Positions 28,255 through 39,677 of a stretch of 60,247 nucleotides of DNA are shown here, piece by piece. Under the pieces are notes generated by a model. That model saw nothing but the letters and a program-made list of their open reading frames with translations. It made no database searches and was not told the origin of the DNA. The stretch comes from a virus. The stretch's first letter is position 1. The number at the start of each line of letters is the position of its first letter. Position numbers and translations under genes: made by a program. Location: positions 1 to 60,247 of the IMG/VR virus record IMGVR_UViG_3300028392_000069. One strand, written 5' to 3'.

Positions 28255-28284
28255 TTGACTTTGCATGGCATTTTGTGGTACAAT
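28255..28284 (+). promoter_or_regulatory. Early promoter P1
   Basis: TTGACT, an 18-bp spacer ending TGTGG, then TACAAT: sigma70 with extended -10 (TGG-TACAAT). It drives the first plus-strand gene and shares TTGAC...TGTGGTA with two other promoters. Confidence 0.75.
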
Positions 28285-28315: not shown

Positions 28316-28330
28316 CCTAACAATGTTAGG
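28316..28330. promoter_or_regulatory. Palindrome site 1 (P1 leader)
   Basis: CCTAACAATGTTAGG, exact consensus, flanked by A/T to give a 17-bp palindrome. Lies between P1 and the first gene, 32 nt before its ATG. Confidence 0.85.
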
Positions 28331-28361
28331 TTTATTAGAGTAGTTAGAAAAGGAAAACATC

Positions 28362-28874
28362 ATGTTAGATATTACAGTAACACAAGCCCCTGAAGTCAAC
28401 GTCATTGACGTTTTACGTAACGCAGTTGCTGAAGCAACGGTTCGCGCCTATGGTGCAGAACGTGAATACGCCATTGCATTGTGCGGGACTTTGCCCTTTG
28501 CTTGGTATTCAGTGGAGCATAGCGATAAGTCTGAAGGGGCAAAGCCTACGCATGCTGAGAAAAAAGCATTGTTCAAAGTGCTCAATGCCGCAAAGCATAC
28601 TAACCCGTCGACGGTGTGGGCGCGTGTACGCAAATATGCTCAGGAACATGTAGAGGGTAAGCCCGAAAATGCTGAGGGCGAAAGTGCTGAGGGCGAATCA
28701 GTGGGCGCAAAAGCTCGACGTTCGCTAACCCTGCGTTTTGTTGAAGAGCTTACTACTCTCTACAAAGCTGGAAAGAATGCTGAATCGATGTCCGCAAAGG
28801 AAACCGATGCGCATACGTACATAGCAAGCGCATTGAAAGCTCTAGGGATTGACTTAGCCACAATCCAATCGTAA
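28362..28874 (+). CDS. First early gene, unknown
   Basis: A 170-residue soluble protein with GAAAAGGAAAAC before the ATG. The N-terminal half is helical (NVIDVLRNAVAEATVRAYGA). The middle has HAEKKALFKVLNAAKHTNPS, then VWARVRKYAQEHVEG, an acidic repeat (NAEGESAEGESVG) and a helical C-terminal domain (SLTLRFVEELTTLYKAGKNA). It is the sole gene behind P1 and is followed by a hairpin, so it is expressed alone and early. A regulatory role is plausible by place only; no family recognised. Confidence 0.75.
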   Translation: MLDITVTQAPEVNVIDVLRNAVAEATVRAYGAEREYAIALCGTLPFAWYSVEHSDKSEGAKPTHAEKKALFKVLNAAKHTNPSTVWARVRKYAQEHVEGKPENAEGESAEGESVGAKARRSLTLRFVEELTTLYKAGKNAESMSAKETDAHTYIASALKALGIDLATIQS

Positions 28875-28881
28875 ACCCGAG

Positions 28882-28905
28882 GGTAAGAGGGGAAACCCTC
28901 TTACC
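28882..28905 (+). terminator. Perfect 10-bp hairpin with GAAA loop
   Basis: GGTAAGAGGG-GAAA-CCCTCTTACC, eight bases after the stop of the first gene. There is no T-run behind it; instead it runs straight into palindrome site 2 and shares its first two bases. Could be an attenuator, an RNase-processing or a protein-dependent termination site. Confidence 0.6.
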
Positions 28906-28918
28906 TAACATTGTTAGG
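28904..28918. promoter_or_regulatory. Palindrome site 2
   Basis: CCTAACATTGTTAGG, extended to a 19-bp palindrome (TACCTAAC...GTTAGGTA). Intergenic, sharing two bases with the upstream hairpin and 19 nt before the next ATG. Confidence 0.85.
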
Positions 28919-28936
28919 TAAACTGGAGAAAATTTT

Positions 28937-29167
28937 ATGGCATACGCAAATGAATATCTTACCGATGAAGAGCATGAGCAAAATCTAGTCACGCAACAAA
29001 ACATGAGGGCAATAAATCAGGGTATAAATGTACATGTTCAATTGTGGCTTGACGGTTTAATTACTGATAGGGAAATAACCGCATACTTTGCCAAACTGAA
29101 CGAACGGTTTTCCCGCGCCGATGTGCGCGGTTTGATTGACCCGAATACGGGCCTGCGTTACGAATAA
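28937..29167 (+). CDS. Small hypothetical protein
   Basis: A 76-residue protein with CTGGAGAAAA before the ATG. Acidic helical N-terminus (ANEYLTDEEHEQNLVTQQNM) and C-terminal half LDGLITDREITAYFAKLNER. Followed by a strong terminator. No recognised family; second gene of the early region, with palindrome site 2 in its leader. Confidence 0.65.
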   Translation: MAYANEYLTDEEHEQNLVTQQNMRAINQGINVHVQLWLDGLITDREITAYFAKLNERFSRADVRGLIDPNTGLRYE

Positions 29168-29185
29168 CCCCCCCTCTCCAAACCC

Positions 29186-29210
29186 AAGCCCGCGCAATGC
29201 GGGCTTTTTT
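29186..29210 (+). terminator. Rho-independent terminator
   Basis: AAGCCCGC-GCAAT-GCGGGCTT then TTTT: an eight-pair stem with T-run, 18 nt after the preceding stop. Confidence 0.9.
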
Positions 29211-29247
29211 ACGTCTGGGCTTTTCTCCCTCCCCCTATTTGAATTGA

Positions 29248-29262
29248 CCTAACAATGTTAGG
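29248..29262. promoter_or_regulatory. Palindrome site 3
   Basis: CCTAACAATGTTAGG, extended to 19 bp by GA/TC (GACCTAAC...GTTAGGTC). Intergenic, about 40 bp after the terminator. Confidence 0.85.
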
Positions 29263-29370
29263 TCGGATGGAATGCCAGTTCTCGGGTCGGCGGTAGCGTA
29301 CCACGTTGTTACAATGTTACAATGTTACGCGAATTTTTAAGTCCCACTGCCAGCATGGTTATTCGGCGAA

Positions 29371-29385
29371 CCTAACAATGTTATG
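29371..29385. promoter_or_regulatory. Palindrome site 4 (degenerate)
   Basis: CCTAACAATGTTATG, one mismatch from consensus, inside the origin-like region. Confidence 0.55.
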
Positions 29386-29406
29386 CTTTTTTCGATGTTA
29401 CGGGCT

Positions 29407-29426
29407 AATGTTACGTGCGTAACATT
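29407..29426. repeat. 9-bp inverted repeat
   Basis: AATGTTACG-TG-CGTAACATT, perfect arms with a 2-nt centre. Its TAACATT half is related to the 15-bp palindrome. Confidence 0.7.
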
Positions 29427-29777
29427 GCTAAGTCCTTGATTTATAAGGATATTTTCGTAAAGTTACAATGTTACGCGATTTTCGGAATGGGTGTCGGTTG
29501 GCGCAAGAAAATTTAGAGGCACGATAATAACGGCAAATGCAATTCATACCACAAAAACTAATTTTTCCCCGCCTCATACCCTCTCTTAAAAACACATAAC
29601 ATTATAACATTATATATATCTACTACTTTTTCTTTTATGAATCAACAACTTGCGAACCTTTTTCCGTTATGTTTGCCTTTTTATAACCATAACTTTGCTG
29701 TAACATTGCCCCATTTCCATAACGCACAAGTCTACCCATTTCATAACACCCCAAACCCAACCCGCAAAAACCCCCCC

Positions 29778-29849
29778 GAAACGTAACAAAGCACAGAAAT
29801 GTAACAAAGCACCGAAATGTAACAAAGCACCGAAATGTAACAAACTAAA
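29778..29849. repeat. Four 18-bp iterons
   Basis: Tandem units gaaacgtaacaaagcaca, gaaatgtaacaaagcacc (twice) and gaaatgtaacaaactaaa. Typical size and arrangement of initiator-binding iterons; also gives rise to a spurious repeat-coding frame on the minus strand. Confidence 0.8.
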
Positions 29850-29886
29850 GCACTCTAATCTTTTGTCGAGCCTAAGACTAAAGGAC

Positions 29887-29915
29887 TTGACATTGCCATA
29901 ACATTGTGGTATAAT
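29887..29915 (+). promoter_or_regulatory. Early promoter P2
   Basis: TTGACA-17 bp-TATAAT, full sigma70 consensus, with TGG before the -10 (extended). Spacer ends cattgtgg as in P3. Drives the small-gene operon from 30026. Confidence 0.92.
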
Positions 29916-29990
29916 ATACGCTGGCACGGAGAAATATAACCCGTAGTCAAACGAGCCCAAGTGCGCCAAAGTGCGCCCAAGCAAAACCCA

Positions 29991-30005
29991 CCTAACAATG
30001 TTAGG
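29991..30005. promoter_or_regulatory. Palindrome site 5 (P2 leader)
   Basis: CCTAACAATGTTAGG, about 70 nt after the predicted P2 start and 20 nt before the first ATG of the operon. Confidence 0.85.
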
Positions 30006-30025
30006 TACTTTCAGAAAGGTTAGAT

Positions 30026-30274
30026 ATGTTAGATGTAGATAAAGACACAAGTAGTCAATGGTGCGAGTGCGCTAGATGTGGGGATGAATTCCCCGTGCGC
30101 CGCAAGCAACTAGGGTATAAGTTATGCCTATGGTGTGGCGAAGAAGCCGCAACTGTAGAACGCAGTTCGTGGTGCATTGTGCAGGAATACTCAAAGGGCG
30201 CATACCAATTGGTTACACCTGCCGCCGCACACATAACCCTCAAGCAAACCAACCCCAAGGAGCAACGCGCATGA
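30026..30274 (+). CDS. Small zinc-ribbon protein
   Basis: An 82-residue protein. CARCGDEFPVRR (about 15-26) and LCLWCGEE (about 34-41) give two CxxC pairs, a zinc ribbon. The ATG is followed by TTAGATG, like other genes here. AGAAAGG lies ahead. First gene of the P2 operon. The zinc ribbon suggests nucleic acid or protein binding; no specific role known. Confidence 0.7.
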   Translation: MLDVDKDTSSQWCECARCGDEFPVRRKQLGYKLCLWCGEEAATVERSSWCIVQEYSKGAYQLVTPAAAHITLKQTNPKEQRA

Positions 30275-30444
30275 ACACAAAGTCCGAAACCATTTCCCAC
30301 ATCGGGATTGCAGTCCTTACCACAATCATTCTTTTCACTTGCTGGGACAGAGAGGGCTGGCTATTCGAAGCTGGCCTAGTATGGGCTGGAGCCAACATCG
30401 GGTTTTTAGTGACAGTCTATTTGAACCAAGGAGAAGATGAATGA
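30271..30444 (+). CDS. Small two-TM membrane protein
   Basis: 57 residues, start ATGA-coupled to the preceding gene with AAGGAG ahead. Two hydrophobic segments (about 10-25 and 32-48) flank WDREGWLFEAG. The C-terminus is GEDE, whose codons carry the ribosome-binding site of the next gene. Membrane protein of unknown role. Confidence 0.65.
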   Translation: MNTKSETISHIGIAVLTTIILFTCWDREGWLFEAGLVWAGANIGFLVTVYLNQGEDE

Positions 30445-30623
30445 AAGTCAAAGAGTTAATCCATTACCTGCAAGGGCGCAACCCTGAGCATGACGTAGTT
30501 ATATCTGGACATGAGCTAGGGTTAGGCAGCGACCTTATCCTTGTAGGTGCATACCAGTATGACAACACCACCTACGTTTGCCTGATAACAGGTGATAGTT
30601 TTGAAGAAGGAGAAGATGAATGA
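30441..30623 (+). CDS. Small hypothetical phage protein
   Basis: 60 residues (MKVKELIHYLQGRNPEHDVV, ending EEGEDE). The opening KELI..L....P...V is common in small phage proteins. Coupled by ATGA on both sides, with GGAGAAGATGA before the start. Function unknown. Confidence 0.65.
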   Translation: MKVKELIHYLQGRNPEHDVVISGHELGLGSDLILVGAYQYDNTTYVCLITGDSFEEGEDE

Positions 30624-30850
30624 ACACCTACTGGAACTATCGCATCGTCAATGCCAAATCAGAAAACGGCGGCGAGGATTGGTACTGCCTGAAAGAAGTC
30701 GTGTACCAAGACGGTAAGCCTTGGGGCTATAACGACCCCTGCATTGGGTCTGATGACATGGACTCTATGCGTGACGTATGGCGCTTGATGAGCCTAGCAA
30801 TGGAAGTGCCGCCGATGCAAGAATCAGACTTTGTAGGAGAAGATGAATGA
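30620..30850 (+). CDS. Small conserved phage protein
   Basis: 76 residues: NTYWNYRIVNAKSENGGEDW, then CLKEVVYQDGKPWGYNDPCI. The WNYRIV...EVYYD..G.P.GY pattern occurs in many short phage and prophage proteins. Ends in GEDE with an embedded ribosome-binding site for the next gene. Role unknown. Confidence 0.7.
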   Translation: MNTYWNYRIVNAKSENGGEDWYCLKEVVYQDGKPWGYNDPCIGSDDMDSMRDVWRLMSLAMEVPPMQESDFVGEDE

Positions 30851-31062
30851 CTATGGTAACTAACACATTCGTAACCGAAGGCAATAAGTACCACGTCGAG
30901 GTATTCGGCAATGGCTGGGCATATTGCGTGACGTGCCAACGCACAGGCGATAACTTTTTTGTCCAAGACCATGATGCCGAGCAACTGCAAAACGAGACTG
31001 ATAACTTTGAGTGCATCGGTGCGATTGATATGTATATGGAAGCATTGGGAGGTTCAACATGA
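30847..31062 (+). CDS. Small hypothetical protein
   Basis: 71 residues, acidic, beta-like start (NTFVTEGNKYHVEVFGNGWA), then CVTCQRTGDNFFVQDHDAEQ. One CxxC but no partner pair. Coupled to both neighbours. Function unknown. Confidence 0.65.
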   Translation: MTMVTNTFVTEGNKYHVEVFGNGWAYCVTCQRTGDNFFVQDHDAEQLQNETDNFECIGAIDMYMEALGGST

Positions 31063-31262
31063 ATACAGAATTATTGGTAGAGCCACGCGACAAGTACGGG
31101 GAGACCCGTATCTACCCCAAGTGCGACAAGTCCAAACTGTTCTGTCAGATGCTCAATCAAAAGACGCTGACCCCACGGGACATCCACAACATCATCCGGC
31201 TTGGATTCACCATCAAAGCAGAACACCCGCCGATTACATTCGGCACAACTCAAGGAGCCTAA
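31059..31262 (+). CDS. Small hypothetical protein
   Basis: 67 residues: RDKYGETRIYPKCDKSKLFC, then TLTPRDIHNIIRLGFTIKAE. Its TAA stop lies within palindrome site 6. Unknown function; part of the P2 operon. Confidence 0.65.
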   Translation: MNTELLVEPRDKYGETRIYPKCDKSKLFCQMLNQKTLTPRDIHNIIRLGFTIKAEHPPITFGTTQGA

Positions 31263-31272
31263 CAATGTTAGC
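31258..31272. promoter_or_regulatory. Palindrome site 6 (stop-start junction)
   Basis: CCTAACAATGTTAGC (last base off consensus). It contains the stop TAA of one gene and the ATG of the next. Confidence 0.8.
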
Positions 31273-31438
31273 TAGATACTGCGTAACAGGATGGAGCCCA
31301 CGCTTTGGGGTGTGGGAGACAGAGATGATTGAGGCTAAGAATATGGAGGCGGCGAAGGTGCGCTACTCCATGAAGTTCTCAAGCAACAAGCGAGTCAAGG
31401 CGTACTTACTACGCACGAATGCAGAGATGATGGAATAA
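31265..31438 (+). CDS. Small hypothetical protein started inside a palindrome
   Basis: 57 residues (MLARYCVTGWSPRFGVWETE, ending TNAEMME). AAGGAG lies seven bases before the ATG, and the ATG sits at the centre of palindrome site 6. A longer frame upstream in the same reading phase overlaps two real genes and is not used. Unknown function. Confidence 0.65.
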   Translation: MLARYCVTGWSPRFGVWETEMIEAKNMEAAKVRYSMKFSSNKRVKAYLLRTNAEMME

Positions 31439-31472
31439 ACAAACGTAACAAACTAAACGAAAGAAGGGCAAC

Positions 31473-32531
31473 ATGGCTTTTAATTCAACAACCCGACTGC
31501 CTTACATACGTTCGTATGCCACGGCGAAAGCAATATACGAGAAGGTCGCGCCGATTCGGGGCGACGAGAACAATCGGCGACCACTAGCCAAGCGAAGCGA
31601 CAAGCACATGCACATAAGCAAGGTGCAAAAGGACGCCGACGAGGTTTATGTCTGCCACTGCTACGACAAGCCGATGGTGACGTACTACCCCGACGACACC
31701 GTGGAAATCCATGATGCACCGCACAGTACAGCGTACACCCGAGAATTCTACGGACAGTTGTTAAGTGGTATGCACGTATACGTAATTAATAGTAAGACTG
31801 TAATGCAACTAAAGGACAGCAAGGATAAGTACGTAATAGCCAAGGGCAACACAATCCGACTGAAGCACGACTACATTAAAAATACTTGGGTGGTGGTGCA
31901 AGCCGAGGGCGCACTTGAGTGGACGCTGAACAAGGCCAAGGCTAACATTGTTAGGCGACCATACGCTGAGTTCTTGGGCTACTACAAGGGGATGACATCG
32001 CTACTCAATGAAGCCGTGGACTTTGATGTGAAGTATGCCCGACGCTACAGCAGACCAGATGCCGACACCCCGTTCATTGCGAAGCACGAGGTTGTACTGC
32101 CTATGCCTACGCTAGTATCCATGTTTGGTGTGAACACAACAACATATTTCGGAGGTGAAACCCTGAACACCACGGAGATAGACAAGGCGAGCAACACATG
32201 GGTTCCGCACTGGGGTGATAAGGATAAATGTGCAGAGTTAATCGGTAAGACCAAGGCCAAGCAACAGGAGGTATTGGCGCTGATGCGTAGTGACCAGCCC
32301 GAAGATACCAAGGGCGACAACTTCTACAAGGCGGCGCTGATGATGCTGATGCAGGGCATGTCGTATGTGAGTGTTAAGAAAGATACAGTCAAGATAGCGA
32401 CATCGACTGCGCGAAAGAAAGCCGACGAGTTCATACTGAGGATGCACAAGGGCGAGGTGCTGGAGCAAAAGCGTATGCCGATGGGCAAGGTGTCAAGCAC
32501 CAACTACCACACATGGTTTGAGTACATATAA
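31473..32531 (+). CDS. 352-residue protein upstream of MoxR
   Basis: Soluble, basic-start protein (TRLPYIRSYATAKAIYEKVA). Middle VYVCHCYDKPMVTYYPDDTV is beta-like. Later GGETLNTTEIDKASNTWVPH and a Lys-rich helical end (TARKKADEFILRMHKGEVLE). Contains palindrome site 7, read in frame as Ala-Asn-Ile-Val-Arg. Last gene before promoter P3 and the MoxR/VWA pair. No family recognised. Confidence 0.75.
   Translation: MAFNSTTRLPYIRSYATAKAIYEKVAPIRGDENNRRPLAKRSDKHMHISKVQKDADEVYVCHCYDKPMVTYYPDDTVEIHDAPHSTAYTREFYGQLLSGMHVYVINSKTVMQLKDSKDKYVIAKGNTIRLKHDYIKNTWVVVQAEGALEWTLNKAKANIVRRPYAEFLGYYKGMTSLLNEAVDFDVKYARRYSRPDADTPFIAKHEVVLPMPTLVSMFGVNTTTYFGGETLNTTEIDKASNTWVPHWGDKDKCAELIGKTKAKQQEVLALMRSDQPEDTKGDNFYKAALMMLMQGMSYVSVKKDTVKIATSTARKKADEFILRMHKGEVLEQKRMPMGKVSSTNYHTWFEYI
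31941..31955. promoter_or_regulatory. Palindrome site 7 (intragenic)
   Basis: GCTAACATTGTTAGG (first base off), in frame as A-N-I-V-R. Confidence 0.75.
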
Positions 32532-32576
32532 GCAGGAAGGGTTGGGAATATTTAGTCTTACACATGACTAAAGTAC

Positions 32577-32605
32577 TTGACTTAGGTATAACATTGTGGT
32601 ATACT
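32577..32605 (+). promoter_or_regulatory. Early promoter P3
   Basis: TTGACT-17 bp-TATACT with TGG before the -10. Spacer ending taacattgtgg matches P2 almost exactly. Drives the MoxR/VWA operon. Confidence 0.88.
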
Positions 32606-32656
32606 ATACGCACAGTAAGAGATAACAATGAGTGAGCAGGGGGGTTTCAGTCCTAA

Positions 32657-32671
32657 CCTAACAATGTTAGG
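32657..32671. promoter_or_regulatory. Palindrome site 8 (P3 leader)
   Basis: CCTAACAATGTTAGG, extended to a 19-bp palindrome (AACCTAAC...GTTAGGTT), about 45 nt after the predicted P3 start and 37 nt before the MoxR ATG. Confidence 0.88.
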
Positions 32672-32708
32672 TTGGGGTTCATTAGTGGTTAGTTAGAAGG
32701 AGTTAGAT

Positions 32709-33773
32709 ATGTCAGAAGTTAATTTTGGTAAGACCGTAACGCTAAAGCAAGCGGTCAATTTGATTTGCACCAACCCCGAGATTCGGTTCATGCTACGGGG
32801 CGAGCCGGGTATTGGTAAGAGTTCGATGCTTGAAGCTATCGCCGAGCGTCTTGGTTATGACTATGCGTATATTGACGTACCCAATATGGATTTGGGTGAC
32901 GTTGCAATGCCTGTCATCGACCACGAGACACGTACCACGAAGTATTACCCCAATGCTCGGTTCAAGGTGCATCTAGGCAAGCCGGTGGTGATGATGTTCG
33001 ACGAGTTCAGTAAGGGCGCAGACCCAGTGAAGAACATGCTCCATCCATGCTTGGAGAAAGCCAACCCACGACTAGGCGACATCAGCCTGAACAACAGTAA
33101 CGTGGTTTTTCTTACGGGCAATTTGGCTACGGACGGAGTGGGAGACGTGCTCAAGGCGCATACCCGCAATCGTATCGTTGAGATAACTGTGGCAAAGCCG
33201 AGCGCCGAGGAGTGGATTGAGTGGGCTATCAACAAGGGACTGGAAGCCGAGGTGATTGCTTGGGTGAATCAGTACCCCCATGCTCTAGCTTCATACATTG
33301 ACCCAGCCCAAGCGGGGAATCCATACATCTACAACCCACGCAAGTCTCAGAGTGCGTTCGTATCCCCACGTTCATTGGAGACTGCATCTAACATTGTTAG
33401 GTCAAGGAAGGACAACGATACCGATGCGGTCATAGCAGCATTGGCTGGCGCAGTAGGTGAGTCAGCGGCGAGAGACTTGCAAGCGTACATCGAGTTCTCA
33501 GACCAACTGCCGACATGGGAGGCGACCATCGTGCAACCTAAGACTACCAAGATACCCACAAGTCCGGGCGCTAACGCAATCGTGGTATTCGGTGCAATTG
33601 CGCGAATCGACAAGGCAAACATTAACCCGTTCATGGAGTATCTCGGGCGTATGGAACCTGAGTGGCAAGCGGTGTTTGCTATCAACATAGCGAAGAATCC
33701 AACCAAGCAGAACATTGCGTTCGCTAGCGGTGCGTTCAAGGATTGGTTGGCTAAGAACCAAGATTTGCTGTAA
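32709..33773 (+). CDS. MoxR-type AAA+ ATPase
   Basis: A 354-residue AAA+ protein. Walker A GEPGIGKSS (31-39), Walker B VVMMFDEFSKG (about 93-103), sensor-1 FLTGNLA (about 134-140). The pore/insert-type segment YIDVPNMDLGDVAMPV resembles MoxR/CbbQ ATPases that remodel VWA-domain partners. AAGGAG precedes the ATG; promoter P3 and palindrome 8 lie in the leader, and palindrome 9 is inside. Followed at once by the VWA gene, its presumed partner. Substrate unknown. Confidence 0.88.
   Translation: MSEVNFGKTVTLKQAVNLICTNPEIRFMLRGEPGIGKSSMLEAIAERLGYDYAYIDVPNMDLGDVAMPVIDHETRTTKYYPNARFKVHLGKPVVMMFDEFSKGADPVKNMLHPCLEKANPRLGDISLNNSNVVFLTGNLATDGVGDVLKAHTRNRIVEITVAKPSAEEWIEWAINKGLEAEVIAWVNQYPHALASYIDPAQAGNPYIYNPRKSQSAFVSPRSLETASNIVRSRKDNDTDAVIAALAGAVGESAARDLQAYIEFSDQLPTWEATIVQPKTTKIPTSPGANAIVVFGAIARIDKANINPFMEYLGRMEPEWQAVFAINIAKNPTKQNIAFASGAFKDWLAKNQDLL
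33387..33401. promoter_or_regulatory. Palindrome site 9 (intragenic, MoxR gene)
   Basis: TCTAACATTGTTAGG (first base off), in frame as S-N-I-V-R. Confidence 0.75.
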
Positions 33774-33790
33774 TCAACAAACGAAAGGAA

Positions 33791-33805
33791 CCTAACAATG
33801 TTAGA
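33791..33805. promoter_or_regulatory. Palindrome site 10 (over VWA start codon)
   Basis: CCTAACAATGTTAGA; the ATG of the VWA gene is its centre. AAGGA lies just ahead. Confidence 0.8.
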
Positions 33806-35009
33806 AGAAAGACGAGTTCAGAAAGCAAAGGTTACATTGATGCGTAACCCTAAGTTTGCTTTGCTGTCGGGCATCCTCATGGTGGGGCGCACGTATGTGA
33901 AAGATGATTTGCCGACTGCGTGTACTAACGGACGCGATGAGTCTTACGGGCGTGAGTTCGTTAAGAAACTACGTGACCCCGAGTTGGCGTTTGTGATAGC
34001 GCACGAAGCAGGACACAAGATGTACCGCCACTTGACAACGTGGAAGAAGCTACACGACGAGAACCACGAGCTAGCTAACCAAGCGTGTGACTACGTTATT
34101 AACCTGATGCTCAGGGACTTAGACCCAACAGAGCAGGTCGTTGCTATGCCGAGGTACAAAGATGGGCCTATGCGCGGTAATCACATGGGCCTGATTGATG
34201 AGAAGTTCCGAGGTATGAATACCAAGCAGGTGTTCGACATTCTCAAGCAGGAGGAGGAAGGAGGAGACGCGGGTAAAGGTGAAGGTGGGAACGGGCATAG
34301 TTTTGACGACCACGACTGGGACGGCGCAAAAGAAATGACCGAGGAAGAGAAGAAGGACTTGGCGCGAGACATAGACCAAGCTATTCGCCAAGGTCAGATG
34401 GCACGGCAAAAGATTGCGGGTGCTGGCGCTGGTGGATTGGACAGGGAGTTGCAGGATTTGCTTGAGCCCAAGGTGGATTGGCGCGAGGTGCTACGTGAGT
34501 ATGTGAAGGCAGTATGCAGAGCCAAAGATGCATCATCGTGGCGCAGAGTCAATCGTAGGTTTCTATCTATGGGCACTTACATGCCTAGCATGATTGGTGA
34601 AAAGATGGGGCACTTGGTTATAGGCATAGATACGTCAGGTTCGATTGGTGGGCAAGAGCTAGCCGACTTTCTTTCCGAGGTGAAGGGGATTGCTGAGGAG
34701 GTTATGCCCAGTCAGGTAGACCTAATCTACTGGGACAGCGCGGTAGCTGCGCATGAGGAATACAGCGAGCAGGATGTACCTAACATTGTTAGCTCTACTA
34801 AACCACGAGGTGGTGGGGGTACAAGCCCATCATGTGTATCTGCGTACTTGAAGGAGAAGAACATCAAGCCTGAGTGCACCATCATTCTGACCGATGGGTA
34901 TGTGGGTGACGATTGGGGTAGCGAGTGGACATCCGAGGTTCTGTGGTGCATCGTAGGTGGTAACACCGAGGTCGCACCGAATGGTAAGACGATTCATATT
35001 AAGGAGTAA
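33798..35009 (+). CDS. Metallopeptidase-like / VWA domain protein
   Basis: A 403-residue protein. The N-terminal domain has the zinc site HEAGH (69-73) in AFVIAHEAGHKMYRHL. A Gly/acid-rich linker follows (EEGGDAGKGEGGNGHSFDDH). The C-terminal VWA domain has the MIDAS motif DTSGSIGG (about 278-285) and a later LTDGY. This is the DUF2201-type peptidase-VWA fusion. It partners MoxR-like ATPases in bacteria. Palindromes 10 and 11 lie at its start and inside. Target and activity unknown. Confidence 0.85.
   Translation: MLEERRVQKAKVTLMRNPKFALLSGILMVGRTYVKDDLPTACTNGRDESYGREFVKKLRDPELAFVIAHEAGHKMYRHLTTWKKLHDENHELANQACDYVINLMLRDLDPTEQVVAMPRYKDGPMRGNHMGLIDEKFRGMNTKQVFDILKQEEEGGDAGKGEGGNGHSFDDHDWDGAKEMTEEEKKDLARDIDQAIRQGQMARQKIAGAGAGGLDRELQDLLEPKVDWREVLREYVKAVCRAKDASSWRRVNRRFLSMGTYMPSMIGEKMGHLVIGIDTSGSIGGQELADFLSEVKGIAEEVMPSQVDLIYWDSAVAAHEEYSEQDVPNIVSSTKPRGGGGTSPSCVSAYLKEKNIKPECTIILTDGYVGDDWGSEWTSEVLWCIVGGNTEVAPNGKTIHIKE
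34779..34793. promoter_or_regulatory. Palindrome site 11 (intragenic, VWA gene)
   Basis: CCTAACATTGTTAGC, in frame as P-N-I-V-S. Confidence 0.78.
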
Positions 35010-35012
35010 AGC

Positions 35013-35357
35013 ATGGACAAAGATTGGATGACTGAAGAGTACGGAATCCCACACAAAAACGGACATGTGCGGTTCTACATGATTGGATTTAATGAAGATG
35101 TGCATGGCTATTTAGGGTGGTTCGACATGACCGACTGGGATAAAGGTTGGGATGAATTATGGGAGACCGCAAAGCAAAGCCGAAATGGTGGTGAGGAATT
35201 CTCAATACTACGGCACGACCAATTACTTGACCTACAAAGAAACGTAATAAATGCGCTGGAAGAAGCGTTAGAGGATAAAGATGAGACCACGTTCTATTGG
35301 TGGTACAAGAAAGAAGCAAAATCTGAATCTAAAGGAGTGAACGATGAAAACCTATGA
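35013..35357 (+). CDS. Hypothetical protein after VWA gene
   Basis: 114 residues, acidic and Trp/Tyr-rich (GWFDMTDWDKGWDELWETAK, then TTFYWWYKKEAKSE), with no membrane segment. AAGGAG lies ahead. Co-transcribed with the MoxR/VWA pair, so it might take part in that system; no family recognised. Confidence 0.65.
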   Translation: MDKDWMTEEYGIPHKNGHVRFYMIGFNEDVHGYLGWFDMTDWDKGWDELWETAKQSRNGGEEFSILRHDQLLDLQRNVINALEEALEDKDETTFYWWYKKEAKSESKGVNDENL

Positions 35358-35505
35358 AGTGGAGTTGGAATACATAGCATATATGGTTGTAACTGTAGAA
35401 GCCGAGAACGAAGACGAAGCCGAGGAGATTGCGTATAAGTCTGTTGAATCATCGAAGGCTGGGGGTAGTTGGCGTACCGAATCAGTGGAAGAAATTTTTA
35501 ATTAA
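35344..35505 (+). CDS. 53-residue acidic protein
   Basis: MKTYEVELEYIAYMVVTVEA, then ENEDEAEEIAYKSVESS and a WRTESVEEIFN end. The alternating V-x-V-x-AEN-x-x-EAEEIA pattern is one seen in many small phage and bacterial proteins (a beta-strand plus helix). It overlaps the preceding gene by 14 nt; AAAGGAG lies before the ATG. Confidence 0.65.
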   Translation: MKTYEVELEYIAYMVVTVEAENEDEAEEIAYKSVESSKAGGSWRTESVEEIFN

Positions 35506-35518
35506 CCGGAGAAATGAA

Positions 35519-36376
35519 ATGAGTATTAGTTCATCAGCGTTATTAGTGGAGTTGAATATCAGCGTATGGCCTGCGTCAAAGATTGACCGCGAGATTACCG
35601 ACAAGGTAAACAACGATGCGGGTGCAGTACACGGGGCGTCGCAGACTAAGAAGAACCTATTCGCAGGTACTAGTATGCGTAGCAACATCGAGAAGTTTGC
35701 GGCGAGAGTTCGGTTGTATCACAACCAATGCACCCTGCCGTGGGCTGACAAGGGTGAGCGCATGTTGCCGACTAAGTTGTTCATTGAGTACAAGCAGACA
35801 ATGGACAAGTACAACGACACATTCGACATGATGTGCGATGAGTTCTTTGTTGCGTATCCTGACCTAGTGGCAGCAGCACCTATTGCATTGAAGGGTATGT
35901 TCAAGGTAGAGGACTACCCCGACATAAATGCGGTGAAAACTAAGTTCGGATTTCGTCGAGCGGTCAAGCCACTGCCCGACGCTGGAGACTTTCGCTTAGA
36001 CATACCAGCGCAGGACTTGCAAGATATACGTGAAGAGTACGAGAAGCAGTACTCGGTCAAGTTAGCCGACGCTATGCGAGCGCCGTGGGAGAGACTGCAC
36101 ACCATGCTCAAGACCATCAGCGAGAAAGTTGCAGAGACAGGCAACGATGACGACAAACCTAAGCGGTATCACGATACGTTTATCTCCAACCCGTTGGAGC
36201 TATGTGAGTTGTTGACTAAGTTGAACGTGACTAATGACCCCAAGTTAGAGGAAGCACGTAAGCAGCTAGAGGTAACAATGTTAGGTACTAACCTTGAGGT
36301 AATTAAGGAGGACTCGGTGGCGCGTACTGTACTGAAGTCTAAGGTAGATGCAATCCTCGGTAAATTTGAATGGTAA
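35519..36376 (+). CDS. Hypothetical protein of the MoxR/VWA operon
   Basis: 285 residues, chosen at the ATG after CGGAGA. Segments are VELNISVWPASKIDREITDK, GTSMRSNIEKFAARVRLYHN, and a long helical C-terminal half (LQDIREEYEKQYSVKLADAM, then LHTMLKTISEKVAETGND). A protein of this style often accompanies MoxR/VWA genes in phage genomes, as far as I recall. Palindrome site 12 is inside. Function unknown. Confidence 0.7.
   Translation: MSISSSALLVELNISVWPASKIDREITDKVNNDAGAVHGASQTKKNLFAGTSMRSNIEKFAARVRLYHNQCTLPWADKGERMLPTKLFIEYKQTMDKYNDTFDMMCDEFFVAYPDLVAAAPIALKGMFKVEDYPDINAVKTKFGFRRAVKPLPDAGDFRLDIPAQDLQDIREEYEKQYSVKLADAMRAPWERLHTMLKTISEKVAETGNDDDKPKRYHDTFISNPLELCELLTKLNVTNDPKLEEARKQLEVTMLGTNLEVIKEDSVARTVLKSKVDAILGKFEW
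36271..36285. promoter_or_regulatory. Palindrome site 12 (intragenic)
   Basis: GGTAACAATGTTAGG, two outer-base mismatches; in frame as V-T-M-L-G. Confidence 0.65.
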
Positions 36377-36386
36377 GGAGAACCAA

Positions 36387-37223
36387 ATGACAGAACACAC
36401 ACGGACTTTTTCTAATCTTTTGTTTGCAGATAAATGCAGACCAACACCCGAACAGACTGTTCAGTGGAAAACAACAACACTAAGGGACGTAAGTTATTTC
36501 TTATGCGAACGTAATCCTACGTGGAATTTTATTGTCACGGAAAAAGATTGGGGTGGTGGCGATAAACTTTGTATAAAGAGAGTAGATGTAGTTAGCAAGG
36601 GAGAAATAATCGGTAAGCTTGTCGGCGCGTATAGCCGTGGCAATAATGGTGTGGAAATAATTGCAAAGAGTTCGCGCAAGTTTACGTCAGACTCTAAGAG
36701 GGCTATATCCATAGCAAAGAAATTACTACTACTCAAGACCAAGCAGGAGAGACTGCATGAATCAGTAGCTGCTGCTGAAAATTGCATATCTAATGCTGTG
36801 TATAACCATGATAGAGCAATGCAGAAAGTTAGGTACAGCCTCAACGAAGTAATTTTTAAGTACATGTTGAAGGACGCAAGAGCGTATGTCGAAGCTAACA
36901 TAAGCCACATGGATAGCAATGGTTTGCAAATGCTAGAGAAATACGATGAGCAATTAGCGCAAGTAAAAACCATTGACCGAATTAAATCATTGTTCGATGA
37001 TAAGAAAACAGCATTGCTTATTTTAGATGAGGGTAAATACCTAGTGAAGATAGGTGACGCCATTGATTTGTACAACGATACTACGCTTCCGATTTCCATG
37101 CGTGGTAATTTAGGCGTACTTAAATTGGTGGAGGTAGGTCAGATGGTTTCAGATATTGGCTGTAAGGTGAACGATGAAACCTTTGTACTAGTGATGGACG
37201 AACAACCTAACATTGTTAGCTAA
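36387..37223 (+). CDS. Hypothetical helical protein
   Basis: 278 residues from the ATG six bases after AAGGAG. The N-terminal third is mixed (CRPTPEQTVQWKTTTLRDVS). The middle is long helix (AISIAKKLLLLKTKQERLHE, then SVAAAENCISNAVYNHDRAM). The last codons Asn-Ile-Val-Ser are palindrome site 13, just before the stop. A+T-richer codon use than its neighbours. Function unknown. Confidence 0.7.
   Translation: MTEHTRTFSNLLFADKCRPTPEQTVQWKTTTLRDVSYFLCERNPTWNFIVTEKDWGGGDKLCIKRVDVVSKGEIIGKLVGAYSRGNNGVEIIAKSSRKFTSDSKRAISIAKKLLLLKTKQERLHESVAAAENCISNAVYNHDRAMQKVRYSLNEVIFKYMLKDARAYVEANISHMDSNGLQMLEKYDEQLAQVKTIDRIKSLFDDKKTALLILDEGKYLVKIGDAIDLYNDTTLPISMRGNLGVLKLVEVGQMVSDIGCKVNDETFVLVMDEQPNIVS
37206..37220. 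promoter_or_regulatory. Palindrome site 13 (gene 3' end)
   Basis: CCTAACATTGTTAGC, encoding P-N-I-V-S immediately before the TAA stop. Confidence 0.78.
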
Positions 37224-37234
37224 GGAGAAACAAA

Positions 37235-37435
37235 ATGCGTAAAGTAAGATTTATGGAACTAATGAAGGAGCCCTTCAAGAAACCCACACCCCTTGAGATG
37301 ATTGCTGCTGAGTTATCAGACGCACACCTTGAGAAACTAAACGCTGAGACTGCTGTGGAATACGCACAGTCAATCGTGGACTACAACACTACCCGCATTG
37401 AGCGGCTCAACACACGACTGGAGGAATACAAATGA
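37235..37435 (+). CDS. Small coiled-coil protein
   Basis: 66 residues; helical second half (ELSDAHLEKLNAETAVEYAQ, then SIVDYNTTRIERLNTRLEEY). GGAG precedes the ATG. The pattern of a basic start and a C-terminal coiled coil is common in small phage proteins of unknown function. Overlaps next gene by 4 nt. Confidence 0.65.
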   Translation: MRKVRFMELMKEPFKKPTPLEMIAAELSDAHLEKLNAETAVEYAQSIVDYNTTRIERLNTRLEEYK

Positions 37436-37662
37436 AAGATCAACCGATATCTATGGAATTACTTGCCGCCAAGCAGTACACAGACTGGATGGTAAAGACT
37501 GGAGGCTACGCCAAGGACATGACCCTGCGTGACCACTTTGCTGGGCTGGCTTTACCATTGATGCTCCAAGCAAACGTAGGTAGATGGGCCGGTAATCATT
37601 CTTTATATGCGGAGCAGGCCTATGAGTTCGCAGACGCAATGCTCAAGGAGCGTGCTAAATGA
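37432..37662 (+). CDS. Small conserved phage protein
   Basis: 76 residues. TLRDHFAGLALPLMLQANVG, then YAEQAYEFADAMLKERAK. The pattern 'R D x F A G x A L x x L' with 'A Y x x A D A M L' is frequent in phage and prophage small proteins. Role unknown. Coupled by ATGA on both sides. Confidence 0.7.
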   Translation: MKDQPISMELLAAKQYTDWMVKTGGYAKDMTLRDHFAGLALPLMLQANVGRWAGNHSLYAEQAYEFADAMLKERAK

Positions 37663-37838
37663 CATTACAAGAACACGTTAAAGCACTACCGGAAGAAGAG
37701 CGGATTAAATTCTTTCGCGCAATTATGGCTGTGGTTGATGCAGGCCGCGCAGCGGGCGTTCCTGCTAAGGAGTGGGCAAAAACATACGCTGACGTGTACA
37801 GGGGAGTAAATGATTTAATCGAGGGGGGTTCCAAATGA
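37659..37838 (+). CDS. 59-residue helical protein
   Basis: MTLQEHVKALPEEERIKFFR, then AIMAVVDAGRAAGVPAKEWA and a helical end. ATGA-coupled to both neighbours with AAGGAG ahead. No family recognised. Confidence 0.65.
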   Translation: MTLQEHVKALPEEERIKFFRAIMAVVDAGRAAGVPAKEWAKTYADVYRGVNDLIEGGSK

Positions 37839-38053
37839 ACTGCTGTAATTCTCATGGTGAATGCACACAAGGGCGTGACTGCCCTATACGCAAGCAACGC
37901 GCCAAGGAAACCGATGATGCGTATATGAGTGGTGGCTGGGACAGGGTTGCTGACCCCTATGATGACATTACCTCGACTTTCAAAGCACTGATTGCAGTGA
38001 TAGCAGTGACCGCAGCTTTGACGCTGCTGGCTTTTTTGATTTGGGGGAAATGA
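37835..38053 (+). CDS. Cys-rich single-TM protein
   Basis: 72 residues. The N-terminal CC-x5-C-x4-C-type cluster (NCCNSHGECTQGRDCPIRKQ) is followed by a C-terminal membrane helix (about 49-69, ALIAVIAVTAALTLLAFLIW). The cysteine start plus TM end is common in small phage proteins. Function unknown. Overlaps the next gene. Confidence 0.65.
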   Translation: MNCCNSHGECTQGRDCPIRKQRAKETDDAYMSGGWDRVADPYDDITSTFKALIAVIAVTAALTLLAFLIWGK

Positions 38054-38262
38054 TGGCCGGATTTCCAAGCAAGAAGGCAGCGGCGCAAGCCAAGCTGGAT
38101 GAAGATGACGACATCCAAGTCTATAAGCGCCCGTGGGTAAGCCTGACAGACGATCAGATAAAAGAAATCGTTGGGCCGTGGGGCGACACACCCATTAAGG
38201 GTTACACCCGCAAACTTATTGACCAAATTGAAGCCAAACTCAAGGAGAAGAACAATGTATGA
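38053..38262 (+). CDS. Small WVSLTD / EAKLKEKN protein, copy 1
   Basis: 69 residues. YKRPWVSLTDDQIKEIVGPW, ending LIDQIEAKLKEKNNV. Shares WVSLTD and EAKLKEKN with the gene at 38476; WVSLTDEEI modules are common in short phage proteins. Its end carries the AAGGAG of the next gene. An ATG one codon earlier is possible. Confidence 0.65.
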   Translation: MAGFPSKKAAAQAKLDEDDDIQVYKRPWVSLTDDQIKEIVGPWGDTPIKGYTRKLIDQIEAKLKEKNNV

Positions 38263-38479
38263 CGACAAACTGCATGAGCAAGCATCTACGTACGCCAGCA
38301 ATCGTAAAGATGCCTATCTTGAAAAGATGAAGAAAGGTGACGTTGAAAAGAAAACCCAAGACGAATTGAATTGGATTTGGGTAGCGCACTACGAAGGCTA
38401 CAAGGAAGGCTACTGGACGGCAAAAGGTGATGACCATTACACGACAGACCCTGCCAAACTCAAGGAGAAGAACACATGA
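38255..38479 (+). CDS. Small hypothetical protein
   Basis: 74 residues, chosen at the ATG seven bases after AAGGAG. Polar helical protein (ASTYASNRKDAYLEKMKKGD, then YEGYKEGYWTAKGDDHYTTD) that ends with the same AKLKEKN as both neighbours. Unknown function. Confidence 0.65.
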   Translation: MYDDKLHEQASTYASNRKDAYLEKMKKGDVEKKTQDELNWIWVAHYEGYKEGYWTAKGDDHYTTDPAKLKEKNT

Positions 38480-38688
38480 CTATTGCATGGTACGACCCCA
38501 CTAACCACCACGTTAGCACGGACAAGAACGACCCCCTGTTTACACCGCTTGGTCAGTTGTGGCCTTTGGTTGTGCAGCGTGAGTGGGTAAGCCTGACGGA
38601 TGGGGATGAGATTGATTGGGATGGTGGCGATTTAAAGTCACTTATTGCCTCAGTTGAAGCCAAGTTGCGAGAAAAGAACAGTGCGTAA
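38476..38688 (+). CDS. Small WVSLTD / EAKLREKN protein, copy 2
   Basis: 70 residues. QREWVSLTDGDEIDWDGGDL, ending SVEAKLREKNSA. Likely paralogue of the 38053 gene, with a different N-terminus. Role unknown. Stop overlaps the next gene's GTG start region. Confidence 0.65.
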   Translation: MTIAWYDPTNHHVSTDKNDPLFTPLGQLWPLVVQREWVSLTDGDEIDWDGGDLKSLIASVEAKLREKNSA

Positions 38689-38929
38689 GTCATACCACCA
38701 CGCTGTAAGGATGGCGCTACAAAAGTATCATGATGGCCTGACCGTATCGGAATTAGCCGAGCGACTGGAGAAACCCCCCGAACCCGTTCGACGGGCGCTA
38801 ATAGCAATGTCCGATGCGTACATAGACAGATGGATTTCCGGTAGGGAACATAGAAAACAATGGGCCGCTGTATGGTGCGTAATAGTGCCGCCACAGAACT
38901 GCCCTAAACCAAAGGAAAAACCTATATGA
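38681..38929 (+). CDS. Small winged-helix-like protein
   Basis: 82 residues from a GTG that overlaps the preceding stop. VRMALQKYHDGLTVSELAER, then LEKPPEPVRRALIAMSDAYI looks like a winged-helix DNA-binding module, with WISGREHRKQWAAVWCV as the wing. A possible regulator of this phage. No ATG start available in the same frame before the HTH. Confidence 0.6.
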   Translation: MRKSYHHAVRMALQKYHDGLTVSELAERLEKPPEPVRRALIAMSDAYIDRWISGREHRKQWAAVWCVIVPPQNCPKPKEKPI

Positions 38930-39126
38930 CCGAACACGAAACCAACCTACGAGACTTAGCAGCAATGTTTGCTATGGCAGGACTATTAGTACGTAACTTC
39001 ACTGAACATGGAGAAGCTATTGTCCCCACTGCATTTAACTTAGCTAACGAATTTATGCAAGCCCGTAATCCTATTAAGGAAGAAGGCATAGCTGCGATTA
39101 AACCTAAGCGTACAAAAGGAGAGTAA
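38926..39126 (+). CDS. Small helical protein
   Basis: 66 residues: HETNLRDLAAMFAMAGLLVR, then an amphipathic helix and a basic end (IKPKRTKGE). The LRD.FA..AM.GLL pattern is usual in short phage proteins. ATGA-coupled. Function unknown. Confidence 0.65.
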   Translation: MTEHETNLRDLAAMFAMAGLLVRNFTEHGEAIVPTAFNLANEFMQARNPIKEEGIAAIKPKRTKGE

Positions 39127-39128
39127 AC

Positions 39129-39329
39129 ATGACTACGGGGATTGAATTTTTAAAACCTGAGAAAAAACGGACAGGGCGGGGACTCGGCAAGAAACCCGCG
39201 CTGTTCAGTACGAGCTTGCGACTATCGAAAGAGGTGATGGATTATTTCAACACCAATTTTCCACGGTCAAAGCAAGCCAAAATTAGAGAAATTCTTGCCG
39301 ATTACGTTAAAAAACAAACTTTGGAGTGA
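39129..39329 (+). CDS. RHH-like small DNA-binding candidate
   Basis: 66 residues, very basic N-terminus (KPEKKRTGRGLGKKPALFST), then SLRLSKEVMDYFNTNFPRSK, QAKIREILADYVKK. A short beta strand followed by two helices fits a ribbon-helix-helix fold; such dimers bind palindromes. This makes it a candidate binder of the repeated 15-bp site. Prediction only. Confidence 0.55.
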   Translation: MTTGIEFLKPEKKRTGRGLGKKPALFSTSLRLSKEVMDYFNTNFPRSKQAKIREILADYVKKQTLE

Positions 39330-39331
39330 AC

Positions 39332-39667
39332 ATGAAAAAGCCAACTGAAACAAAAGTGCAACCAGTAAAGCGGGCGCGTGGCCGACCACGTAAAAGTCCT
39401 TTGCCGGTAGTTCAAAAATACAGCGCAAGCCAACTAAAAACTGCTTTTCTACCGGATATGGTGAACCATCCACCGCACTACAAAGTAGGCGGCATTGAGA
39501 CCATTGACTTTATTAGGGCTAAGCTAACGCCCGATGAATTCCGTGGATATCTAAAAGGCAACGTGCTCAAATACTTGACTCGCGCAGGGCACAAGGGCAA
39601 TGCAAACGAGGACATTGACAAGATGGTGTGGTATGCCAACCGACTAAAAGAAACACAACACACCTAA
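39332..39667 (+). CDS. DUF3310 protein with AT-hook
   Basis: 111 residues from the ATG after GGAG. The N-terminus is basic with an AT-hook-like RARGRPRKSP. The body NHPPHYKVGGIETIDFIRAK, then YLKGNVLKYLTRAGHKGNAN, EDIDKMVWYANRL is the DUF3310 family (phage 'SaV-like' proteins, some called nucleotide kinase). Its TAA stop lies in palindrome 14. Biochemical role is uncertain. Confidence 0.8.
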   Translation: MKKPTETKVQPVKRARGRPRKSPLPVVQKYSASQLKTAFLPDMVNHPPHYKVGGIETIDFIRAKLTPDEFRGYLKGNVLKYLTRAGHKGNANEDIDKMVWYANRLKETQHT

Positions 39668-39677
39668 CATTGTTAGG
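39663..39677. promoter_or_regulatory. Palindrome site 14 (last site)
   Basis: CCTAACATTGTTAGG, spanning the TAA stop of the DUF3310 gene and just ahead of a terminator. Last site before the replication module. Confidence 0.85.

What the first reader, a model, noticed from the sequence alone, without database searches (positions are those of the whole stretch)
31941..37220. Palindromes are kept inside genes in one reading frame
Sites 7, 9, 11 and 13 lie inside four different genes, and all read as [A/S/P]-Asn-Ile-Val-[R/S]. The proteins are otherwise unrelated, so the shared tetrapeptide is most easily explained by selection on the DNA or RNA, using the frame that is least harmful.
Basis: partly seen in the sequence, partly recalled or inferred. 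Interest (0 to 1): 0.7.

Follow-up and report, generated by a model that had tools for sequence, protein, structure and literature searches.

The report
Dispersed palindromes matched to phage regulator
This uncultured phage, and dozens of its relatives, carry 10-20 copies of one short palindrome through their early genes, even inside protein-coding sequence, and the spelling of all copies changes together with one small early gene that probably makes the protein reading them.

Summary
In detail: 12 exact and 2 one-mismatch copies of CTAACAWTGTTAG lie at 28317-39676 (0.14 expected by chance), and sites 7, 9, 11 and 13 read [A/S/P]-N-I-V-[R/S]. "One reading frame" is weaker than it sounds. The palindrome carries stop codons in one frame, a fifth in-gene site (36272) reads V-T-M-L, and relatives use both open frames (88 versus 48). 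Selection on the nucleic acid is strongly supported. In the VWA gene and gene 31473 the NIV residues come and go with the palindrome. In the AAA+ gene S-N-I-V is conserved without it, and only codon choice tracks the site. Relatives of this uncultured phage group use TAACA-n1-TGTTA or TAACA-n2-TGTTA genome-wide. Two phages with 86.5% identical DNA differ by one spacer base at seven orthologous sites. The spacer class follows the first early gene (28362-28874, a novel family) better than it follows any of 15 other gene families, and a relative lacking that gene lacks all sites. Best reading: dispersed DNA operators of this protein, acting as elongation roadblocks ('stoperator'-like) that restrain early transcription. 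Binding is inferred, not shown.

The parts
28362..28874 (+). Gene for the candidate cognate regulator (170 aa), first early gene, novel family, predicted all-alpha
   Evidence: Present in relatives with sites, absent with all sites in L007; spacer class follows its tree best; no Pfam/PHROG/NCBIfam/PDB match
28255..28284 (+). Promoter P1 (TTGACT...GTGGTACAAT) of the regulator gene
   Evidence: Conserved promoter family; site 34 bp downstream
29887..29915 (+). Promoter P2 (TTGACA...GTGGTATAAT)
   Evidence: repeat D10; site 78 bp downstream
32577..32605 (+). Promoter P3 (TTGACT...GTGGTATACT) upstream of the AAA+ gene
   Evidence: repeat D10; site 54 bp downstream
28317..28329 (.). Site 1, leader of the regulator gene
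   Evidence: exact match
28905..28917 (.). Site 2, intergenic
   Evidence: exact match
29249..29261 (.). Site 3, intergenic
   Evidence: exact match
29372..29384 (.). Site 4, intergenic, one mismatch (outer base)
29992..30004 (.). Site 5, leader of P2
   Evidence: exact match
31259..31271 (.). Site 6, supplies the TAA stop of gene 31059-31262 and the ATG start of gene 31265-31438
31942..31954 (.). Site 7, inside gene 31473-32531, reads A-N-I-V-R
32658..32670 (.). Site 8, leader of P3
   Evidence: exact match
33388..33400 (.). Site 9, inside the AAA+ gene, reads S-N-I-V-R
33792..33804 (.). Site 10, contains the ATG start codon of the VWA gene
34780..34792 (.). Site 11, inside the VWA gene, reads P-N-I-V-S
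36272..36284 (.). Site 12, one mismatch, inside gene 35519-36376, reads V-T-M-L (the other open frame)
37207..37219 (.). Site 13, last codons of gene 36387-37223, reads P-N-I-V-S-stop
39664..39676 (.). Site 14, supplies the TAA stop of the DUF3310 gene 39332-39667
31473..32531 (+). Host gene of site 7 (unknown function)
32709..33773 (+). Host gene of site 9, AAA+ (MoxR-like) ATPase
33798..35009 (+). Host gene of site 11, DUF2201 putative metallopeptidase with VWA-like domain
35519..36376 (+). Host gene of site 12 (unknown function)
36387..37223 (+). Host gene of site 13 (unknown function)

Best explanation
The palindromes are dispersed DNA operators, [C]TAACA-(1 or 2 bp)-TGTTA[G], for the protein encoded by the first early gene (28362-28874). 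Most likely a dimer binds each two-fold symmetric site. One site lies 34-78 bp downstream of each early promoter (including the regulator's own) and others follow every few hundred to about 1,500 bp through the early operons. The protein would therefore restrain early transcription by blocking elongating RNA polymerase and would autoregulate itself. Because position matters more than context, sites are written wherever the sequence allows: in leaders, across stop/start codons (C-TAA-CA-ATG-TTAG), and inside genes in the frames the palindrome leaves open. Shown: the sites, their exactness, their conservation apart from protein sequence, their concerted spacer switch, and their association with this gene. 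Inferred: binding by this protein, DNA rather than RNA as target, dimerisation, and roadblocking as the effect.
For: Far above chance. Sites confined to one early region in 60-66 kb relatives. Codon choice at in-gene positions follows the genome's site class: AAA 14/16 vs 4/22, VWA 14/17 vs 0/23, gene 31473 10/13 vs 1/18, gene 35519 12/15 vs 1/17, Fisher p between 6e-5 and 3e-8, phylogeny not corrected. L028 (n1) and L033 (n2) are 86.5% identical, yet all seven aligned intergenic site pairs differ by one base in the spacer, the site in gene 31473 slid by one base in its left half without an indel, and the AAA and 35519 sites are erased by synonymous changes. In the closely related pair L029/L021 the regulator gene is replaced (no blastp match) while its neighbour terminases are 93-94% identical. 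Spacer class needs fewer changes on the regulator tree than on the trees of all 15 other families tested (e.g. AAA 5 vs 2, terminase 8 vs 3; IQ-TREE 7 vs 4). L007, 74% identical in aligned DNA, has no homologue of the gene and no site. The two regulator subfamilies are homologous (hhalign E 4e-8). Mismatches fall on the outer base or base 6, symmetric at base 6 (24 vs 31), with no G.U preference (7 vs 13), as for a DNA dyad. In-gene sites do not fold as RNA better than shuffles.
Against: No binding, expression or repression data. AlphaFold models (pLDDT 79-80, pTM about 0.5) match no solved DNA-binding fold. Subfamily alone does not fix the spacer: L011, L089, L097-L101 and L110 pair n2-type regulators with n1 sites, and L008 and L056 are mixed. 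Roadblocking is argued from position only; no site overlaps a core promoter, so classical repression of initiation is not indicated. 124 of 456 n2 sites contain a gene's start codon, which would also suit translational control.
Confidence: 0.62

Rival explanations
1. RNA-level control: the palindrome is a short hairpin in early mRNA, bound by the same regulator to repress translation at start codons or to modify elongation (antitermination-like).
For: Every site near a promoter is in the transcribed leader; many sites hold a start codon (n2 124/456, n1 37/351); the leader site at 29992 folds well (z -2.3).
Against: No wobble-pair tolerance (7 G.U-compatible vs 13 mirror changes); TAAC/GTTA letters almost invariant; in-gene sites do not fold better than shuffles; mid-gene sites make no sense for start-codon occlusion.
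Confidence: 0.15
2. The sites are read by another protein (host factor or another phage protein such as the small RHH-like protein 39129-39329), and the 28362 gene only travels with them.
For: Binding not shown; the RHH-like protein (weak BrnA/antitoxin match) is conserved in nearly all relatives.
Against: The RHH orthologue is 87.5% identical across the spacer switch L029/L021 and is present in L007, which has no sites; the spacer tracks the 28362-family tree best.
Confidence: 0.13
3. Genome-handling sites: centromere-like or packing/replication signals bound by a nucleoid-type protein (parS or matS-like), with no direct effect on transcription.
For: matS is also a 13-bp symmetric site spread over genes (own knowledge); a weak GapR hit in 2 of 36 regulator homologues (E 0.024).
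Against: Confined to the early region and tied to promoter leaders and gene borders; no integrase or resolvase found; no lysogenic or plasmid phase known.
Confidence: 0.07
4. The shared NIV is a protein motif under ordinary protein-level selection and the palindrome is incidental.
For: S-N-I-V is conserved in the AAA+ gene with or without the palindrome.
Against: Most copies are not in genes; NIV varies where the site is absent in the VWA gene and gene 31473; codons follow the genome's site class.
Confidence: 0.02

Closest known systems
Stoperators of cluster A mycobacteriophages (L5, Bxb1; PMC6550527, PMC9283540)
   Same: 20-30 copies of a 13-bp site dispersed in the phage genome, mostly outside promoters, often in short intergenic gaps; each phage group has its own consensus that matches its own repressor; a site near the repressor gene is proposed to autoregulate it; bound repressor blocks elongation.
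   Different: L5 sites are asymmetric, oriented with transcription and bound by a monomer of a two-domain (HTH + Stoperator) repressor of temperate phages. Here sites are two-fold symmetric, many lie deep inside genes or over start codons, are confined to one early region, no integrase is found, the candidate protein is unrelated to known families, and the spacer length itself switches.
22-bp dispersed repeats of virulent T1-like phages (T1, Stevie, TLS; PMC4319613, PMC11447400)
   Same: About 16-20 copies in a phage considered lytic, compared to stoperators by those authors, role unknown.
   Different: Asymmetric, oriented, predominantly intergenic, no cognate protein proposed in the passages read.
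SPBRE / MrpR of Bacillus phage SPbeta (PMC10516654)
   Same: One phage master regulator reads a repeated 15-bp element at many places.
   Different: Element lies in promoter regions; MrpR has a tyrosine-recombinase fold; SPbeta is a prophage.
matS/MatP of enterobacteria (own knowledge)
   Same: 13-bp palindrome GTGAC-RNY-GTCAC, same geometry as CTAAC-ANT-GTTAG, spread across genes.
   Different: Chromosome organisation over hundreds of kb; different letters and different protein family.
Rickettsia palindromic elements (own knowledge)
   Same: Palindromic DNA tolerated inside open reading frames.
   Different: Those are mobile insertions of roughly 100-150 bp; here 13-14-bp sites arise in place by substitutions without insertions in genes.

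Membership tests
Cluster A-type stoperators | Many copies of one short site dispersed mostly outside promoters | tested here: met
   14 sites in 11.4 kb, none in a core promoter
Cluster A-type stoperators | Site asymmetric and oriented with transcription | tested here: not met
   Two-fold symmetry, centre A or T in both orientations
Cluster A-type stoperators | Site consensus matches the phage's own repressor across relatives | tested here: met
   Spacer class tracks the candidate regulator's tree
Cluster A-type stoperators | Repressor with HTH plus Stoperator domain | tested here: not met
   No family or fold match for the candidate
Cluster A-type stoperators | Temperate phage (integrase or parABS) | tested here: inconclusive
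   No PF00589 in 14 records and no PF00239 in 10; regulator not found in genome contigs; records may be incomplete and parABS was not searched
Cluster A-type stoperators | Bound repressor halts transcription elongation | not testable with these tools
   needs an experiment
T1-like dispersed repeats | 22-bp asymmetric intergenic repeat, consensus VWATAGCAYKWWTTGYTAAAAV | tested here: not met
   13/14-bp symmetric site, partly inside genes
SPBRE/MrpR | Repeat lies in promoter regions | tested here: not met
   Sites are 34-78 bp downstream of the -10 or elsewhere
SPBRE/MrpR | Reader has a tyrosine-recombinase fold | tested here: not met
   No such match for the candidate
matS/MatP | Site GTGAC-RNY-GTCAC read by MatP | tested here: not met
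   Letters differ; no MatP-like hit
Rickettsia palindromic elements | Insertion lengthening the host protein | tested here: not met
   Homologues with and without the site align without gaps there

The most novel reading that the evidence does not exclude
A new family of phage regulators reads two-fold symmetric sites written throughout the early genes, including inside coding sequence. When a phage acquires a regulator with a different spacer, all 10-20 sites are rewritten together: one base is inserted or deleted between genes, half-sites slide or are erased by synonymous changes inside genes, and phages such as L008 and L056 are caught midway.
Probability: 0.55. Interest if true: 0.82.

Novelty: new variant of a known kind. 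Interest (0 to 1): 0.72.

Why it matters
It offers a clean natural record of how a regulator and a whole set of its sites change together, including sites constrained by overlapping protein sequence, with closely related phages on either side of the switch. It points to a regulator family with no match in Pfam, PHROGs, NCBIfam or 50,697 phage records, and suggests stoperator-like control in phages with no sign of lysogeny, a question left open for T1-like phages. The predictions (cognate binding, spacer preference, elongation block) are simple to test.

Tried and rejected
Peptide motif under protein selection alone: rejected. Mobile palindromic insertion: rejected, no length change at sites. 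RNA hairpin: disfavoured, no wobble signal and weak folds. A hidden motif in L007: k-mer, dyad and direct-repeat searches found only its promoters. First assumption that the 28362 subfamily alone sets spacer 1: rejected when L011 and others were seen to pair the other subfamily with spacer 1. Fold searches of both AlphaFold models against the PDB: nothing significant. Regulator in phage isolates or bacterial genomes: none. Profile A2 could not be used for a scan. Two paper searches for dispersed palindromes in virulent phages found nothing, and a third found only unrelated regulators.
Full report
What is in the window. The window is an uncultured virus record of 60,247 bp. It holds 12 exact CTAACAWTGTTAG and two one-mismatch copies, all at 28317-39676. 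Shuffled windows give 0.14 such matches on average and none of 100 reaches 14.

One reading frame? The 13-bp site contains TAA and TAG in one frame, so only two frames are open. Site 12 (36272), also inside a gene, uses the other one (V-T-M-L). Over all relatives the 13-bp form is read 88 times as N-x-V and 48 times as L-T-[M/L]-L. The 14-bp form, which has stops in two frames, is read 43 of 43 times as L-T-x-V. My gene calls are home-made, and a few small ORFs among these counts may be spurious. The common frame in the window is therefore a mixture of stop-codon limits and small numbers.

Is the selection on the protein or on the DNA/RNA? Forty relatives were fetched through the AAA+ gene and 70 loci through a regulator alignment. 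Relatives use either TAACA-n1-TGTTA (as here) or TAACA-n2-TGTTA, usually 10-20 copies of one kind. At the VWA position, n1 phages have the site in 14 of 17 unique contexts and n2 phages in 0 of 23, with different residues. At gene 31473, 10/13 versus 1/18, while 12/18 n2 phages have their own form there (e.g. A-T-N-V-R). At the AAA+ position, 14/16 versus 4/22, but S-N-I-V is conserved in 21 of 22 n2 contexts: only the codons change. So the peptide is a by-product of the site in some genes and pre-existing in another. The counts are not corrected for shared ancestry.

Concerted switch. L028 (n1) and L033 (n2) share 86.5% DNA identity over 9.2 kb. All seven aligned intergenic site pairs differ by one base in the spacer. 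In gene 31473 the left half-site slid by one base without an indel. In the AAA+ gene and gene 35519 the n1 site was erased by synonymous changes. L029 and L021 show the same at six intergenic pairs, with one n1 site left in the L021 AAA+ gene. L008 (6 n1, 11 n2) and L056 (6 and 6) look like intermediates. Further dialects exist: A..T or G..C as outer base, TGACA..TGTCA half-sites (L109, L113, L114), and spacer 3 in L102.

Which protein? The first early gene, 28362-28874, is replaced between L029 and L021 while its terminase neighbours are 93-94% identical. n1 phages close to the window carry one subfamily and n2 phages another, homologous by profile comparison (E 4e-8). Spacer class needs fewer changes on the regulator tree than on the tree of any of 15 other families in the same phages (IQ-TREE 4 versus 7 for AAA). 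L007 has no homologue of this gene and no sites, although its AAA+ protein is 82% identical; L044 also lacks the gene and carries an unrelated 24-bp palindrome. Loci were chosen by the regulator, so the independent co-occurrence evidence is the set. The subfamily is not the only determinant, since some n2-type regulators pair with n1 sites.

Anatomy. A promoter family TTGAC-n-GTGGTATAAT lies at 28255, 29887 and 32577, with a site 34, 78 and 54 bp downstream of the respective -10 element; similar distances recur in most relatives examined, and no exact 13/14-bp site overlaps a core promoter in those examined (one spacer-3 form in L089 does). Sites also supply stop codons and start codons: 124 of 456 n2 sites and 37 of 351 n1 sites contain a called start codon. 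In complete-sized relatives sites are concentrated in this region. No tyrosine integrase was found in 14 records and no resolvase in 10, and no bacterial genome contig was found to encode the regulator.

DNA or RNA? Mismatches sit at the outer base or at base 6; the four letters TAAC/GTTA are nearly invariant, base 6 changes symmetrically (24 versus 31), and G.U-compatible changes are not favoured (7 versus 13). In-gene sites do not fold better than shuffles as RNA. A DNA dyad is the better reading; sequence-specific RNA binding is not excluded.

Best explanation and comparison. Dispersed operators of a new regulator family, acting like stoperators to restrain elongation in early operons, with autoregulation. 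Cluster A mycobacteriophage stoperators are the nearest known system (PMC6550527, PMC9283540), but these sites are symmetric, lie inside genes, and come with a different protein and no sign of lysogeny. T1-like phages have unexplained asymmetric repeats (PMC4319613, PMC11447400). It works like a stoperator system; it is not filed as a member of that family because defining features were tested and not met. Binding, dimerisation and roadblocking remain inferred.

Noticed in passing
L044:5239-13889: A distant relative (AAA+ 42% identical) carries eight copies and one near-copy of an unrelated 24-bp palindrome, GGACAGCAGTT-nn-AACTGCTGTCC, and no TAACA sites: a similar layout with a different site.
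   Followed up: partly
window 28255, 29887, 32577: Three copies of one promoter family (TTGAC-n-GTGGTATAAT) head the early operons; L007 keeps three such promoters although it has no palindromes.
   Followed up: partly
window 29776-29847: Four tandem 18-bp units (GAAATGTAACAAAGCACC) just upstream of promoter P2; the nearby stretch 29300-29480 holds degenerate GTTACAATGTTAC copies.
   Followed up: no
window 33798-35009: PHROG labels this protein HNH endonuclease, but Pfam finds DUF2201 putative metallopeptidase plus VWA-like domain; the PHROG label looks wrong.
   Followed up: no
window 39129-39329: A 66-aa protein resembling RHH/BrnA-type antitoxins, conserved in nearly all relatives including L007.
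   Followed up: partly
L109, L113, L114: A further dialect, TGACA-n2-TGTCA, next to divergent regulators; L109 also holds eight TAACA-n1 sites.
   Followed up: partly
L008, L056: Genomes with both n1 and n2 sites; several of the n1 sites in L008 lie inside genes, as if coding sites lag behind after a switch.
   Followed up: partly
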